Positions 3,008 through 35,109 of a stretch of 35,416 nucleotides of DNA are shown piece by piece; position 1 is the stretch's first letter, and each line of letters starts with the position of its first letter. This stretch comes from Ruminococcus sp. (GTDB taxonomy: Bacteria; Bacillota; Clostridia; Oscillospirales; Ruminococcaceae), in assembly GCA_017521805.1 (NCBI GenBank), contig JAFXDK010000078.1, positions 1-35,416 of the forward strand. The letters run 5' to 3'. The notes beneath the pieces are model-generated. The model had not been told where the DNA came from and did no database searches. It worked only from the letters and a program-made list of their open reading frames with translations. The position numbers and the translations under genes were made by a program.

Positions 3008-3574
3008 TTAGTCACTAACCTGTGAATCTTCGTCACGGCCCTCGTTGTACTGATCAAGAGCATAGCCCTGTGCATCTTCGAGATCAGGATTGTCACCAAG
3101 ACCATCTGTATCATCGTTGTAGTTCTTGTTTGTAAGACCAGCAGGATATGTACCATAGTACTTACCGCTTCTGGATACGCAAGCAATAACTACACCCTCG
3201 TGGAGACGAGCAGAATATCTGGAGTTTGTGATAGAATCGCTGTATTCCTTAACATATGTAAGAACTGTATTCCAATCTGCAACAGCATCAGAACCGCCTG
3301 TGCCGCCTGCGCCGCCTTCGCCGCCTTCGCCGCCTTCAGATAATGTACCATACCAACCGTCATCAAGAGTAATATCTCTACCCTCTTCGTCGATTTCCTC
3401 AAGACCAGCGTTGATGTTAGTCATGATTGTCTTAGCGTCTGCGTTAGCAGCCTGAATCTTGGACTTCTTTACCCAACCGAGCATAGCGGGTACGAGGATT
3501 GCTGCGAGAACACCGATGATAGCAATAACAACGATGAGCTCAATGAGTGTAAAACCTTTTCTTGTTGTTTTCAT
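3008..3574 (-). CDS. Putative major type IV pilin (188 aa)
   Basis: Starts MKTTRKG^FTLIELIVVIAIIG with Glu5 and a hydrophobic helix that ends in VPAMLG, the classic type IV pilin N-terminus. Signs of high expression: AAGGAGG with good spacing, a consensus promoter, a structured leader and preferred codons. A Gly/Glu-rich stretch at residues 81-95 (GGEGGEGG...) is encoded by in-frame 9-bp tandem repeats (3311-3337). The C-terminal part shares YYGTYPA-x-LTNKNY with the neighbouring prepilin. In Ruminococcus albus, type IV pili have been linked to adhesion to cellulose; a similar role here is possible but not shown by sequence. That this is the major subunit is inferred from the expression signals. 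Confidence 0.93.
   Translation of the reverse strand: MKTTRKGFTLIELIVVIAIIGVLAAILVPAMLGWVKKSKIQAANADAKTIMTNINAGLEEIDEEGRDITLDDGWYGTLSEGGEGGEGGAGGTGGSDAVADWNTVLTYVKEYSDSITNSRYSARLHEGVVIACVSRSGKYYGTYPAGLTNKNYNDDTDGLGDNPDLEDAQGYALDQYNEGRDEDSQVSD
3311..3337. repeat. 9-bp in-frame tandem repeat in the pilin gene
   Basis: Three perfect copies of GCCGCCTTC (plus-strand reading), preceded by degenerate copies, encode Gly-Gly-Glu units. Unit length is a multiple of three, so slippage would lengthen or shorten the loop without a frameshift. Confidence 0.85.
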
Positions 3575-3699: not shown

Positions 3700-4049
3700 T
3701 TTCTCGAAAATTTTTTCAAAAAAAATTCACTTTTTACATCAAAACGGTAAATGGACATTTATTTCGCCCTCTTTTCGTCATATTGCACAATATTCTGTGA
3801 ACTTTTTAAATTATTAAACTTTTGATTTCGATTTAAACTGCCAGTACAAATTCGACTATTTTTCACACTGTAAAATCATGTTTTTCTATTACTATTTGTA
3901 TATCATAGACATTTTGTGCATTTTGTCTGAAATCAACATTCGTTATTTGTCATGATTTTTTGACCTGAATTTACTGAATTGTATCGCGCTTGGAATTAAT
4001 TAAATTTTATATTATTTACAGTATTGAATTAGGTATTTATTTTACAAAA
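3700..4049. other. AT-rich gap upstream of the pilin promoter
   Basis: About 350 bases of very AT-rich DNA between the pilin promoter and the small-peptide locus. No coding frame with an RBS was seen. There is a 14-base palindrome at 3780-3793 (ATATTG-CA-CAATAT), and A/T tracts next to the pilin -35 that could act as an UP element. Confidence 0.5.
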
Positions 4050-4078
4050 TTGACTTTTCAAACTTAATATGGTATAAT
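4050..4078 (+). promoter_or_regulatory. Promoter of the small toxin-like peptide mRNA
   Basis: TTGACT (4050-4055), 17-base spacer, TATAAT (4073-4078), giving a start near 4085. The leader can fold CACCTCC (4091-4097) onto GGGGTG (4107-4112), hiding the Shine-Dalgarno AAAAGGGG. Confidence 0.85.
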
Positions 4079-4118
4079 TATCTTGTCGTTCACCTCCAAC
4101 TGAAAAGGGGTGTTGTCA

Positions 4119-4202
4119 GTGGAATACTTAATCGTTTTTTTTATTTCTGTTCTTGCAGGAATAGTCAGTAACTACATCTGCAAATTAATAGACAGAAAGT
4201 AA
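4119..4202 (+). CDS. 27-aa hydrophobic peptide, Fst/holin-like type I toxin candidate
   Basis: A short frame starting at GTG with AAAAGGGG 8 bases upstream. The peptide begins MEYLIVFFISVLAG, has one membrane-spanning segment (~residues 4-21) and ends in a charged tail CKLIDRK. This pattern (short acidic/polar start, single helix, K-x-x-DR-K end) resembles the Fst/TxpA/holin-like peptides of type I toxin-antitoxin systems in Firmicutes, which damage the membrane when over-made. A dedicated promoter, a terminator, an RBS-sequestering helix and a convergent antisense transcript support a real regulated gene. It sits between pilT and the pilin gene on the opposite strand. Toxicity is inferred; the peptide could also be a harmless small membrane protein. 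Confidence 0.78.
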   Translation: MEYLIVFFISVLAGIVSNYICKLIDRK

Positions 4203-4219
4203 GACCGACAAACTTACGA

Positions 4220-4250
4220 AAAAACTCGGAGATGCAACTCCGAGTTTTTC
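4220..4250. terminator. Bidirectional terminator shared by toxin mRNA and antisense RNA
   Basis: Stem CTCGGAG (4225-4231) with CTCCGAG (4238-4244), extended by AAAA/TTTT, loop ATGCAA, flanked by an A-run on the left and a T-run on the right. It can end transcripts from both sides. Confidence 0.88.
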
Positions 4251-4289
4251 TGTCATCAGTAGACTTAATCGCTTTGTGGCTTTCACCAT
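4220..4289 (-). ncRNA. Predicted ~70-nt antisense antitoxin RNA
   Basis: From a consensus minus-strand promoter the RNA would run from about 4289 to the bidirectional terminator. It has no coding frame. Two blocks of it match the 5' part of the peptide gene as direct repeats: ACTTAATCG at 4263-4271 and 4126-4134 (each preceded by TCAGT), and TTCACC at 4282-4287 and 4089-4094. The RNA is therefore complementary to the toxin mRNA at its leader and at the start codon, in addition to the terminator loop. This is the logic of RNA II in the Fst par system. Confidence 0.65.
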
Positions 4290-4295
4290 ACTTAT

Positions 4296-4324
4296 ATTAT
4301 ACTCTATTTTTTTCATTTTGTCAA
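4296..4324 (-). promoter_or_regulatory. Consensus promoter of the antisense RNA
   Basis: Minus strand TTGACA (4319-4324), 17-base spacer, TATAAT (4296-4301): a perfect match. No gene other than the short antisense RNA lies between it and the terminator at 4220. It is stronger than the toxin promoter, as expected for an antitoxin. Confidence 0.88.
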
Positions 4325-4333
4325 CTACTTTTG

Positions 4334-4362
4334 AAAAACAGGCGGCAAAACCTGCCGCCTGT
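4334..4362 (-). terminator. Terminator after pilT
   Basis: Perfect 10-bp stem ACAGGCGGCA (4338-4347) with 4353-4362, 5-base loop, followed on the minus strand by a T-run. It insulates the small RNA locus from pilB-pilT transcription. Confidence 0.92.
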
Positions 4363-4372
4363 TGTATTATTA

Positions 4373-5473
4373 TTAGTTGAGACCGCCTGTAGGTACACCG
4401 CCAAGCTGTGTAAGGAAACGATAGAATTCCTGCTTGTCAAGGCACTTATCAAGAGCGTCAACTTCGTTGATTACGCCCTTAGCAGTAAGACGTGCAAGCT
4501 CCTGGTCAAGTGACATCATGCCCTGCTGCTTACCTGTCTGGATTGCAGACTGGATAAGGTGAATCTTGTTATCACGAATCATAGCAGCAATAGCGTCTGT
4601 TACGTTGAGGATTTCCATTACAGCGATACGTCCTGTACCGTCCTTTCTCGGAATAAGTGTCTGAGAAATAACTGCAACAAGGTTGTTTGCAAGCTGTGTA
4701 CGAATCTGCTGCTGCTGATGCTCAGGGTAAACGTCGATAATACGGTTGATTGTATCAGCGGCAGATGTTGTATGAAGTGTAGACATTACAAGGTGACCTG
4801 TTTCAGCCGCAGTTACAGCAGCCTGAATTGTCTCGAAGTCACGCATTTCTCCTACGAGGATTACATCAGGGTCTTCACGGAGAGCAGCTCTCAGCGCCAG
4901 TGAGAATGAAGGAACGTCATCACCAATCTCACGCTGGTTTACCATACATCTCTTGTGATCGTGAACGTACTCGATAGGATCCTCAACAGTAATGATATGT
5001 GCAGATCTGTTAAGATTTACAAAGTCAATCATTCCTGCGAGAGTTGTAGATTTACCTGAACCTGTAGGGCCTGTTACAAGCACAAGTCCACGGGGACGCA
5101 TAGCGAAATCCGCAAGAATCGGAGGAAGTCCAAGATCCTCAAGTGTAGGAATATCGTTACGGAGCAGACGGATAGCAATACCGGGCTTACCCTTCTGGAA
5201 GTACACGTTTACACGGTGACGATAACCGCTCTTTGTCTGGAAAGAGAAGTCAGTATCGATATGGTTGTTAATCTGTGTCTGCTGCTGCTCGTTTGTCATC
5301 TGGTTTACGATATCCAGTATTTCTTCCTCGTCCATTTCGGGATACTGTGAACGCATTGTTCTCAGTGTACCGTTGAGACGAACAACGGGAGCGATAGCGT
5401 TTGTGAAATGAAGGTCAGAACAGCCCAGAAGTCTTACCTCATCAAGTATTCTATGAATGTTAATTATACCCAT
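4373..5473 (-). CDS. pilT: Type IV pilus retraction ATPase PilT
   Basis: A 366-aa hexameric secretion-type ATPase that drives pilus disassembly and so twitching motility. Visible motifs are Walker A GPTGSGKSTT (135-144), the Asp box (ITVEDPIEY, ~161-169), Walker B DVILVGEMRD (203-212) and the His box TGHLVMSTLHT. The length and the absence of the MshEN domain and tetracysteine zinc motif seen in its neighbour separate PilT from PilB. The start has GGAGG at a good distance. It lies 28 bases after pilB, so the two ATPases form one unit. The presence of PilT implies retractile pili rather than a static pseudopilus. Confidence 0.95.
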   Translation of the reverse strand: MGIINIHRILDEVRLLGCSDLHFTNAIAPVVRLNGTLRTMRSQYPEMDEEEILDIVNQMTNEQQQTQINNHIDTDFSFQTKSGYRHRVNVYFQKGKPGIAIRLLRNDIPTLEDLGLPPILADFAMRPRGLVLVTGPTGSGKSTTLAGMIDFVNLNRSAHIITVEDPIEYVHDHKRCMVNQREIGDDVPSFSLALRAALREDPDVILVGEMRDFETIQAAVTAAETGHLVMSTLHTTSAADTINRIIDVYPEHQQQQIRTQLANNLVAVISQTLIPRKDGTGRIAVMEILNVTDAIAAMIRDNKIHLIQSAIQTGKQQGMMSLDQELARLTAKGVINEVDALDKCLDKQEFYRFLTQLGGVPTGGLN

Positions 5474-33103: not shown

Positions 33104-33129
33104 AAAATTATCATAGTATTCAAATGCAA

Positions 33130-33401
33130 TGAAGGGAAATAAAGCCTTTTTAGTTTTTCAGAGAGCCGCTGTTGGTGCGAATGCGGTAAACGACACAGGT
33201 TATAGCTCCTCCCTGAGCAGTCGGTTGAAACGGCAGTTGTACTGTCGGATTAGCTCCGAACGGGTTCTCCCGTTACAGAGATATGCGTTAGCGGACGCAG
33301 ATGAGTGGGTGTAAAAGTATACACCAAGAAGAGTGGTACCACGGAATATAGAATTTCGTCTCTTCCATGCCGATTGTGCGTGGAGGAGATTTTTTATTTC
33401 T
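33130..33401 (+). promoter_or_regulatory. T-box leader, leucine type, with terminator
   Basis: The conserved T-box core GAGTGGTACCACGG is at 33331-33344 and the stem I region AGAGAG...TTGGTGCGAA at ~33160-33180. A CTC triplet at 33206-33208 (a second follows at 33209-33211) fits a leucine specifier. The terminator is 33358-33396 (CTCTTCCATGC with GCGTGGAGGAG, then T6). Uncharged tRNA-Leu would pair with both specifier and T-box and favour the antiterminator, switching leuA on when leucine is short. Confidence 0.92.
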
Positions 33402-33447: not shown

Positions 33448-35109
33448 ATGATGAACGCATCAAAGTACACAAGACAATTTTTCAAAGCTCCCGCAACATC
33501 AATGAAGTGGACTGAGAAAACCCACATTGAAAAAGCGCCCATATGGTGCAGTGTTGATTTACGCGACGGCAATCAGGCGCTTATCACACCTATGAATCTG
33601 GAAGAAAAGCTGGAATTTTTCAAGCTTCTGGTAGATATCGGCTTCAAGGAAATCGAAATCGGCTTCCCTGCCGCATCTGAAACGGAATACGAATTCTGCC
33701 GCACACTTATTGAGCAGGATATGATACCCGACGACGTTGCAATACAGGTACTTACCCAATCCCGTGAGCATATCATTGAAAAAACATTTGAGGCACTCCG
33801 CGGCTGTAAGAATGCAATCGTGCATCTTTACAATTCCACCAGCGTGGCACAGCGCGAGCAGGTATTCCGCAAAACCAAGGAGGAAATCATAAATATTGCG
33901 ATTACAGGCGCAAAGCTCTGCAAGGAGTACCGCGAAAAATACGAGGGAAATTTCCGTTTCGAGTACTCCCCCGAAAGCTTCACAGGCACAGAGCCCGAAT
34001 TTGCTCTGGAGGTATGCAATGCCGTACTTGATATATGGCAGCCCACCGCCGAGGATAAGGTAATTATAAATCTTCCTGTTACAGTGCAGGTTTCCATGCC
34101 CCACGTTTATGCAAATCAGGTTGAGTATATGTGCGAGAATATAAAATACCGCGAAAATGTGGTGATTTCCACACATCCCCACAACGACAGAGGCTGTGCC
34201 GTTGCAGATACTGAAATGGCACTTCTTGCAGGCGCAGACAGAGTTGAGGGAACACTTTTCGGAAACGGCGAGCGCACAGGCAACGTTGATATAATCACCC
34301 TTGCTATGAATATGTTTTCACAGGGCATTGACCCACAGCTTGATTTTTCCGATATTCCGTCAATCTGCGAGGTATACAGCCGTGTAACGAATATGAATAT
34401 CCACGAGCGTTCACCCTATTCGGGAAAGCTTGTATTTGCGGCATTCAGCGGCTCACATCAGGACGCTATCGCAAAGGGTATGAAGTGGCGGGAGGAGGGA
34501 CACACAGAGCACTGGACAGTCCCCTATCTTCCAATCGACCCCAAGGACGTTGGCAGAGAGTATTCCGCAGATGTTATCCGCATCAACAGCCAGTCGGGCA
34601 AGGGCGGAATCGGCTATATTCTCGAAAAGCACTTCGGATATGACCTGCCGAAGAAAATGCGCGAGGTTGTGGGATATATGGTCAAGGGTATCTCCGACCA
34701 CAAGCACAAGGAGCTTCTCCCCGACGAAGTATACGGCATATTCAAGGAAAGCTTTGTGGATATAACTGCGCCTCTTGACGTAAAAGAAACCCATTACAAA
34801 CAGTATGGAGGCGGCATTGAGGCTACCGTATCACTTCTATACAACGGAAAAAAAGCATCTGTAACAGATACAGGTAACGGACGACTTGACGCTGTAAGCA
34901 ACGCAATACGCTCATATACGGGACTTGATTTCAGTCTTAACAGCTATACCGAGCACGCTCTTGAAGTGGGCTCAGCTTCAAAGGCTGTTTCATACGTAGA
35001 AATTATCAACAGAAATGGCAAAAGCTTCTGGGGCACAGGAATAGACAACGATATTATCATATCGTCGATTAAAGCTCTTGTAAGTGCTGTAAATAATATG
35101 CTGAAATAA
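33448..35109 (+). CDS. leuA: 2-isopropylmalate synthase LeuA (long form)
   Basis: A 553-aa enzyme condensing acetyl-CoA with 2-oxoisovalerate, the committed step of leucine synthesis. The catalytic HMGL-like domain shows SVDLRDGNQALI (~35-46) and the metal motif STHPHNDRG (~238-246); the C-terminal part (~430-553) is the LeuA dimer domain that senses leucine. Start WCSVDLRDGNQALI and length place it with the long LeuA form also found in actinobacteria, not the ~510-aa proteobacterial form. AAGGAGAG precedes the ATG; the second Met is also possible. Controlled by the leucine T-box. No leuCDB follows within the window. Confidence 0.96.
   Translation: MMNASKYTRQFFKAPATSMKWTEKTHIEKAPIWCSVDLRDGNQALITPMNLEEKLEFFKLLVDIGFKEIEIGFPAASETEYEFCRTLIEQDMIPDDVAIQVLTQSREHIIEKTFEALRGCKNAIVHLYNSTSVAQREQVFRKTKEEIINIAITGAKLCKEYREKYEGNFRFEYSPESFTGTEPEFALEVCNAVLDIWQPTAEDKVIINLPVTVQVSMPHVYANQVEYMCENIKYRENVVISTHPHNDRGCAVADTEMALLAGADRVEGTLFGNGERTGNVDIITLAMNMFSQGIDPQLDFSDIPSICEVYSRVTNMNIHERSPYSGKLVFAAFSGSHQDAIAKGMKWREEGHTEHWTVPYLPIDPKDVGREYSADVIRINSQSGKGGIGYILEKHFGYDLPKKMREVVGYMVKGISDHKHKELLPDEVYGIFKESFVDITAPLDVKETHYKQYGGGIEATVSLLYNGKKASVTDTGNGRLDAVSNAIRSYTGLDFSLNSYTEHALEVGSASKAVSYVEIINRNGKSFWGTGIDNDIIISSIKALVSAVNNMLK

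What the first reader, a model, noticed from the sequence alone, without database searches (positions are those of the whole stretch)
4050..4324. Compact Fst/par-like type I toxin-antitoxin locus hidden in the pilT-pilin gap
Seen directly: a 27-codon GTG-started frame for a single-helix peptide with a basic tail; its own TTGACT-17-TATAAT promoter; a leader helix able to hide its RBS; a perfect convergent TTGACA-17-TATAAT promoter 170 bases away; one bidirectional terminator between them; and two short direct repeats (TCAGT..ACTTAATCG and TTCACC) that make the ~70-nt convergent RNA complementary to the toxin mRNA at its 5' leader and start codon. Established: in the enterococcal par locus RNA I (Fst toxin) and RNA II converge on a shared terminator and pair through direct repeats. 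Inference: this is a chromosomal relative with a divergent toxin, placed between pilus genes. It is too short for normal gene calling.
Basis: partly seen in the sequence, partly recalled or inferred. Interest (0 to 1): 0.82.

Follow-up and report, generated by a model that had tools for sequence, protein, structure and literature searches.

The report
Hidden toxin–antisense RNA pair in Ruminococcus
Between two pilus genes of a Ruminococcus-type gut bacterium lies a tiny gene for a membrane peptide, probably toxic, facing a short antisense RNA that matches and should silence its start; it belongs to a large, mostly unlabelled branch of a known kind of bacterial toxin–antitoxin system.

Summary
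Window 4050-4324 holds a par-type (Fst-like) type I toxin-antitoxin locus: a 27-codon GTG-started single-helix peptide (4119-4202), its own promoter, a perfect convergent promoter, a hairpin between them, and a repeat that makes the convergent RNA complementary to the toxin start codon. Relatives settle it. Of 116 copies collected, 108 had enough flank; 90 have a promoter of at least 10/12 pointing back at the toxin, against 4.3% of 540 shuffles. In 64 non-redundant loci, chosen for two recognisable promoters, antisense and toxin RNAs pair twice as well within a locus as between loci (-36.3 vs -18.0 kcal/mol; 0 of 10,000 permutations). Four species carry the module at this pilT site, 26 of 30 inspected pilT loci do not, and two of those align to both flanks as empty sites. 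Corrections: the window's leader does not clearly hide its RBS, the TTCACC repeat is not used in the best duplex, and Fst models do not recognise the peptide. Unexpected: Rfam's 'Streptococcus sRNA SpF66' consensus encodes a peptide of this family, so it is probably a toxin mRNA. Expression and toxicity are untested. New member of a known kind.

The parts
4050..4078 (+). toxin promoter TTGACT-17-TATAAT
   Evidence: 11/12 match; toxin promoter of at least 10/12 in 64 of 108 copies vs 2.6% of 540 shuffles
4085..4252 (+). predicted toxin mRNA (RNA I-like), ends inferred
   Evidence: promoter and hairpin positions; 4084-4252 folds better than 200 of 200 shuffles, z -3.59
4083..4088 (+). 5' arm of the 5'-3' fold-back (TTGTCG)
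   Evidence: pairs with CGACA after the stop codon; fold-back co-varies across 64 loci
4095..4123 (+). leader hairpin that pairs over the GTG start codon; SD lies in its loop
   Evidence: MFE of the leader; not more stable than shuffles (z -0.06)
4107..4110 (+). Shine-Dalgarno GGGG
   Evidence: sequence; stretch used
4119..4202 (+). toxin peptide frame, 27 aa, GTG start
   Evidence: relatives; NG86 dN 0.05-0.14 vs dS 0.30-1.38 against three same-site orthologues, few changes
4116..4134 (+). repeat copy on the toxin start (target of the antisense RNA)
   Evidence: D1; duplex covers the start codon
4206..4211 (+). 3' arm of the 5'-3' fold-back (CGACAA)
   Evidence: (I14)
4220..4249 (.). hairpin shared by both RNAs, read as bidirectional terminator
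   Evidence: 15-nt arms, 93% complementary; z -4.85; not listed by the scan
4256..4271 (-). repeat copy inside the antisense RNA
   Evidence: D1; -26.7 kcal/mol duplex
4219..4289 (-). predicted antisense RNA (RNA II-like), about 70 nt, ends inferred
   Evidence: promoter position; 4217-4289 folds at -23.7, z -3.81
4296..4324 (-). convergent antisense promoter TTGACA-17-TATAAT
   Evidence: 12/12; 12/12 in 55 of 108 copies, 0 of 540 shuffles

Best explanation
A par-type type I toxin-antitoxin module. RNA I (about 168 nt) is a folded mRNA for a 27-aa single-pass membrane peptide; its 5' end pairs with the stretch just after the stop codon. RNA II (about 70 nt) is made from the strong convergent promoter, shares the terminator hairpin, and carries a second copy of the toxin start region, so it pairs over the GTG start codon and blocks translation. 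When RNA II falls, the peptide is made and should harm the membrane or otherwise stall the cell. Shown here by computation: layout, antisense-target co-variation, 5'-3' fold-back, presence/absence at the site, some coding constraint. Inferred: transcription, translation block, membrane toxicity.
For: 116 distinct copies in 177 fetched loci. Convergent promoter of at least 10/12 in 90 of 108 copies vs 4.3% of 540 shuffles; 12/12 in 55 vs 0; at least 10/12 in 52 of 74 further loci, not de-duplicated. Own vs swapped antisense pairing -36.3 vs -18.0 in 64 loci; 61 of 64 toxins and 62 of 64 arms prefer their own partner; 0 of 10,000 permutations. Start codon covered in 64 of 64 own duplexes vs 588 of 960 swapped. 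5'-3' fold-back own -11.6 vs swapped -8.8, 0 of 10,000. dN below dS in six of six pairs of the four same-site orthologues. Copy in 4 of 30 pilT loci; empty sites in G278 and G043.
Against: No expression or toxicity data. The window copy is among the weaker ones: duplex -26.7, with one foreign arm better; P(SD paired) 0.28; leader pairing -8.8 against -15.1 for swapped partners; conserved Trp replaced by Leu. Across the family SD hiding is hardly above shuffled leaders (0.81 vs 0.73; over 0.5 in 70 of 74 vs 73 of 74). Changed codons among orthologues are few, and replacing ones are not fewer than silent ones in two of six pairs. Fst models do not recognise the peptide. The 64 loci were pre-selected for two recognisable promoters; before dropping over-long arms and near-duplicates only 24 of 76 toxins ranked their own arm first (68 of 76 arms did).
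Confidence: 0.88

Rival explanations
1. The architecture is real but this copy is a fading remnant: still transcribed, with a toxin or antitoxin that no longer works well.
For: Trp lost (108 of 116 copies have it; the window and its three same-site orthologues do not), weak own duplex, weak leader hairpin; one same-site orthologue, L080, has a poor toxin promoter (8/12) and a leader that aligns badly.
Against: Both window promoters near-perfect, frame intact, dN below dS; Fst of pAD1 itself has Val at the Trp position (PMC7472228 section 2).
Confidence: 0.2
2. A small non-toxic membrane peptide with antisense control, used as a regulator (for example of membrane proteins or pili).
For: No toxicity test exists; functions of chromosomal par relatives remain obscure (PMC7472228 section 4).
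Against: Layout, size, patchy distribution (24 of 125 genus genomes at E<=1e-7, my count), up to 9 matches per genome and tandem copies fit toxin-antitoxin modules; most inspected pilT loci lack it.
Confidence: 0.08
3. Chance: an AT-rich gap with accidental promoters, hairpin and a short frame.
For: Promoter-like sites are common in the stretch (12 vs 5.4 expected); the window's own duplex is reached by 5 of 2000 shuffles.
Against: Conservation of the layout and within-locus matching in dozens of loci.
Confidence: 0.01

Closest known systems
[quoted passage not shown]
   Same: Convergent promoters, bidirectional terminator, direct repeats that place RNA II complementarity on the toxin start, sequestered mRNA 5' end, GUG start, single-helix peptide with charged tail and an XXXG motif, here SXXXG (PMC7472228: abstract, introduction, sections 2 and 4, legends). 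Fst loci fetched show, by eye, the same repeat of the start region beyond the terminator.
   Different: Peptide not listed by PF13955 or NF033608; profile comparison with five Fst peptides (two of them below the Fst cut-off) gives no support (probability 1.7); the fold-back partner lies after the stop codon.
Rfam RF02442 SpF66_sRNA (Streptococcus pneumoniae F66)
   Same: 4 of 47 scanned sources pass its gathering score over the toxin mRNA; its consensus encodes MSLILELVLTIIADVIAGIILYFVCKWLDGKE, 38 bits to the family model, 0 of 2000 shuffles.
   Different: The window does not match it; Rfam files it as an sRNA, not an mRNA.
C. difficile type I toxins (NF047374; CD2517.1-RCd8 and kin)
   Same: Weak profile similarity: 23 of 58 members at E<=0.1, best 0.00056, vs 0 of 58 shuffled peptides; convergent antisense RNA.
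   Different: Window 18.6 bits against a 60-bit cut-off. Unrelated membrane families score as well (ATPase_gene1 12 of 58, best 0.00062), so this may be generic helix similarity. The first three such toxins described have 50-53 aa, others 34-47, and their antisense RNAs share a long complementary region with the mRNA (PMC6563280 sections 2 and 4).

Membership tests
par/Fst type I TA | convergent promoters for toxin mRNA and antisense RNA | tested here: met
par/Fst type I TA | shared bidirectional terminator | tested here: met
   hairpin; the simple scan did not list it; termination itself not testable
par/Fst type I TA | direct repeats giving complementarity at the toxin start | tested here: met
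par/Fst type I TA | 5' stem-loop hiding the Shine-Dalgarno | tested here: inconclusive
   window P(SD paired) 0.28; family 0.81 vs 0.73 for shuffled leaders; leader arms co-vary slightly, -12.4 vs -11.3, 0 of 10,000
par/Fst type I TA | mRNA 5' end sequestered by an intramolecular helix | tested here: met
   window fold; family swap test
par/Fst type I TA | Trp between TM helix and charged tail, and P/D/S/TXXXG motif | tested here: inconclusive
   SXXXG present, Trp is Leu in the window; Trp in 108 of 116 copies; combined motif in 20 of 58 related members vs 0.8% of shuffles
par/Fst type I TA | toxin recognised by PF13955 / NF033608 | tested here: not met
   at E<=0.1, 4 of 58 members reach NF033608 and 1 of 58 PF13955
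par/Fst type I TA | both RNAs expressed; peptide toxic; RNA II protects | not testable with these tools
   no expression data here
RF02442 SpF66 | passes Rfam gathering score | tested here: not met
   window; relatives: 4 of 47 sources
C. difficile type I toxin NF047374 | passes the 60-bit cut-off | tested here: not met
   window 18.6 bits

The most novel reading that the evidence does not exclude
The peptides ending in YICKWLD form one large, unnamed type I toxin family across Clostridia and Negativicutes, with a branch in Streptococcus that is filed as the sRNA SpF66. It either bridges Fst and the C. difficile toxins into one superfamily or reached the par layout independently. Each locus, even within tandem arrays, keeps a private antisense code, so one species can hold several non-cross-reacting modules.
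Probability: 0.4. Interest if true: 0.55.

Novelty: new member of a known kind. Interest (0 to 1): 0.42.

Why it matters
It suggests that a mechanism known mainly from enterococci, staphylococci and streptococci is widespread and little annotated in gut Clostridia: a restrictive 9-residue pattern alone gave 416 loci in GTDB species genomes (the best 80 were kept and seen). The within-locus match of antisense and target gives a natural data set for how RNA antitoxins stay specific. It also suggests that the pneumococcal 'sRNA' F66, reported among sRNAs with reduced fitness in nasopharyngeal colonisation (PMC3395615, passages), should be re-read as a toxin mRNA.

Tried and rejected
Rfam on the window gave only a T-box far away; the permissive scan of 3950-4380 gave 10 weak matches below gathering scores, rejected. 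A DNA search of the locus in the family matched in 147 of 148 genomes at E<=10, largely promoter-consensus stretches: uninformative. Fst Pfam family in 20 relatives: 7 matched at E<=10, none over cut-off, and controls rang in 10 of 14 named genomes: uninformative. NCBIfam Fst in 348 genomes of the phylum: 3 match at E<=0.001, 1 over cut-off, the window's genome none; 1 of 14 controls rang. PHROGs: no family for the window peptide; phrog_738 (no function) for 8 of 15 members, best 3.7e-4. PDB: none. Plasmid and phage collections: no tblastn match of one member, the L004 peptide; IMG/VR: 11 loci. Pilus function for the peptide: not the main reading, because 26 of 30 inspected pilT loci lack a recognisable copy (in 5 of these no pilin-like frame was found downstream either; 107 of 125 genomes had a pilT match, 30 loci were given). 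Profile homology to Fst: hhalign probability 1.7, in a different register, reversed control 0.4; the Fst model scores 0 of 58 members above the 99th percentile of shuffles, and the family model puts 1 of 5 Fst peptides above all shuffles. A homology claim to Fst therefore rests on motif, layout and the SpF66 bridge, for which no shuffled control was run against NCBIfam. Weak Pfam matches (ATPase_gene1, Phage_holin_3_3 and others) were set aside as generic membrane-helix matches. Literature: the motif letters occur in 1 held paper, unrelated; the listings show no paper on this family in Ruminococcus, and passages of the one paper concern SymE; Fozo 2010 is not held, so its 'Fst-like' C. bolteae sequences (named in PMC6563280) could be this family.

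Selections: 116 copies needed at least 30 bits and differ in DNA context; 108 had enough flank; 76 had both promoters at 9 or more and fitting spacing; 74 had an arm of at most 50 nt and 64 remained after dropping near-duplicates. In one search, of 91 loci, 2 were too short and 15 set aside as already seen (L225 among them through a slip in the script); L187 was mis-parsed and counted as a miss.

Full report
What is there. The window is a whole contig (G000:C59). Between pilT (4373-5473, minus strand) and a pilin gene (3008-3574, minus strand; frames, names from recall of the sequence features) lies a plus-strand frame, GTG 4119 to stop 4202, for MEYLIVFFISVLAGIVSNYICKLIDRK. Upstream is TTGACT-17-TATAAT (4050-4078); facing it is a perfect TTGACA-17-TATAAT (4324-4296). 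A 15-nt inverted repeat at 4220-4249 (fold -16.4 kcal/mol, z -4.85) lies between them. The stretch 4116-4134 over the start codon recurs at 4256-4271 inside the convergent RNA. The window's antisense arm pairs with the toxin mRNA at -26.7 kcal/mol; 5 of 2000 dinucleotide shuffles do as well. The whole predicted mRNA folds at z -3.59 with its 5' end paired to CGACA just after the stop codon.

Relatives. With the window peptide alone, 25 of 99 genomes (the own one included) matched at E<=10, many by chance. A 15-member profile (A1) matched 96 of 125 genomes of the genus at E<=1, mostly short chance matches, and 24 of 125 at E<=1e-7 (my count of the rows, own genome included), 38 of 396 in the family and 26 of 394 in the order at E<=0.001 (the order sample repeats some family genomes). 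Up to 9 matches occur in one genome (G524, G849), some in tandem. A restrictive pattern gave 416 loci in GTDB species genomes; the best 80 include records titled Butyrivibrio, Blautia, Eubacterium ramulus, Hungatella, Faecalibacterium, Veillonella and Phascolarctobacterium. Viral contigs gave 11 loci.

Layout test. Of 116 distinct copies, 108 had enough flank. A convergent promoter of at least 10/12 lies downstream in 90 of 108 (4.3% of 540 shuffles), and a perfect one in 55 (0 shuffles); a toxin promoter of at least 10/12 in 64 of 108 (2.6% of shuffles). Among 91 viral and named loci, 74 were taken as new and long enough, and 52 of these had a convergent promoter of at least 10/12.

Antisense test. 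For loci with two recognisable promoters (76 of 108; 64 after dropping two over-long arms and near-duplicates), I compared pairing of each antisense arm, terminator excluded, with its own and with foreign toxin mRNAs. Own -36.3, swapped -18.0 kcal/mol; 61 of 64 toxins and 62 of 64 arms prefer their partner; 0 of 10,000 permutations reach the own mean. Before that clean-up, 24 of 76 toxins and 68 of 76 arms ranked their partner first. The window toxin ranks its own arm second of 64, and its arm ranks its own toxin first. The own duplex covers the start codon in 64 of 64, swapped ones in 588 of 960. In the aligned same-site orthologues the repeat and the start region differ together (window and L087 against L081; alignment). 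This is what a cis-acting antisense antitoxin predicts.

mRNA structure. The 5'-3' fold-back co-varies (own -11.6, swapped -8.8; 0 of 10,000). Hiding of the Shine-Dalgarno is less clear: mean pairing 0.81 in 74 loci, but 0.73 with shuffled leaders, and over 0.5 in 70 loci against 73; leader arms still match their own partner slightly better (-12.4 vs -11.3; 0 of 10,000). In the window the best leader hairpin covers the GTG and leaves the GGGG in the loop (P(SD paired) 0.28), and its leader pairing (-8.8) is weaker than with swapped partners (-15.1).

Site. PilT of the three other carriers (G273, G267, G282) is 96-99% identical to the window's over 157 aa, and all four species have the module next to pilT; 26 of 30 inspected pilT loci lack a recognisable copy, among them some with PilT as close. 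G278 and G043 align to both flanks but lack the stretch with the module. Among the four, NG86 dN (0.05-0.14) is below dS (0.18-1.38) in six of six pairs, and third positions hold 4-13 of 7-19 changed bases; but changed codons are few (1-7 silent, 3-8 replacing) and the overlapping antisense target may constrain them too.

What it is. The features given for par in Weaver 2020 (PMC7472228; abstract, introduction, sections 2 and 4 and legends read) are convergent promoters, a bidirectional terminator, direct repeats on the toxin start, a sequestered 5' end, an RBS stem-loop, and a Trp/XXXG signature. In the window the stem-loop is doubtful and the Trp is Leu; the others are met by sequence and fold. 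pAD1 Fst itself has Val at the Trp position; 108 of 116 copies here have Trp, the window and its three same-site orthologues do not. By sequence the peptide is not an Fst by the models (family), and a profile comparison with five Fst peptides loci fails. The curated model that most members touch is the C. difficile type I toxin, 23 of 58 at E<=0.1 and 0 of 58 shuffled, below its cut-off in each case shown; unrelated membrane families reach similar E-values.

SpF66. Four of 47 scanned sources pass Rfam's SpF66_sRNA over the toxin mRNA (L026, L171, L125, L205; two of the 47 repeat the places of others). The printed consensus encodes MSLILELVLTIIADVIAGIILYFVCKWLDGKE: 38 bits to the family model, best of 2000 shuffles 9.3, and E 0.00096 to the Fst model, below cut-off. 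F66 lies next to F67 (PMC3395615, passages); F67, as M18, is annotated in PneumoBrowse2 as Fst family according to PMC12323649 (passages). D39 carries three annotated Fst-family type I systems (PMC6212727, passages). PMC7472228 mentions a DXXXG clade of pneumococcal toxins; the SpF66 consensus peptide has DVIAG. That these are the same clade is inference.

Verdict. A par-like type I toxin-antitoxin locus by anatomy and comparison, an unannotated-looking member (no gene model was consulted for this genome) of a large toxin branch that Pfam and NCBIfam do not name. Toxicity, expression and biological role remain untested; the pilus setting looks like a landing site rather than a function.

Noticed in passing
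window 33120-33366: T-box leader (RF00230, 99.7 bits) just upstream of a plus-strand frame at 33448 that looks like 2-isopropylmalate synthase (name from recall).
   Followed up: no
L026 1400-1616, L171 499-712, L125 1781-2006, L205 1462-1674: Matches to Rfam SpF66_sRNA coincide with the toxin mRNA; the Rfam consensus encodes a peptide of this family, so the 'sRNA' is probably a toxin mRNA.
   Followed up: partly
L158 (5 copies in 14.5 kb), L159 (3), L163 (3), L160 (2): Several toxin copies close together, most with an antisense arm of their own.
   Followed up: partly
L080: Same-site orthologue with a poor toxin promoter and leader but a perfect convergent promoter: possibly a module being lost.
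   Followed up: no
window 3301-3345: The pilin gene carries a short Gly-rich repeat (GGEGGEGGAGGTGG) coded by near-identical units.
   Followed up: no
terminator loops of 76 loci: 22 of 76 hairpins carry TGCA in their central 12 bases, including the window, which could allow kissing of the two RNAs; no chance expectation was computed.
   Followed up: no
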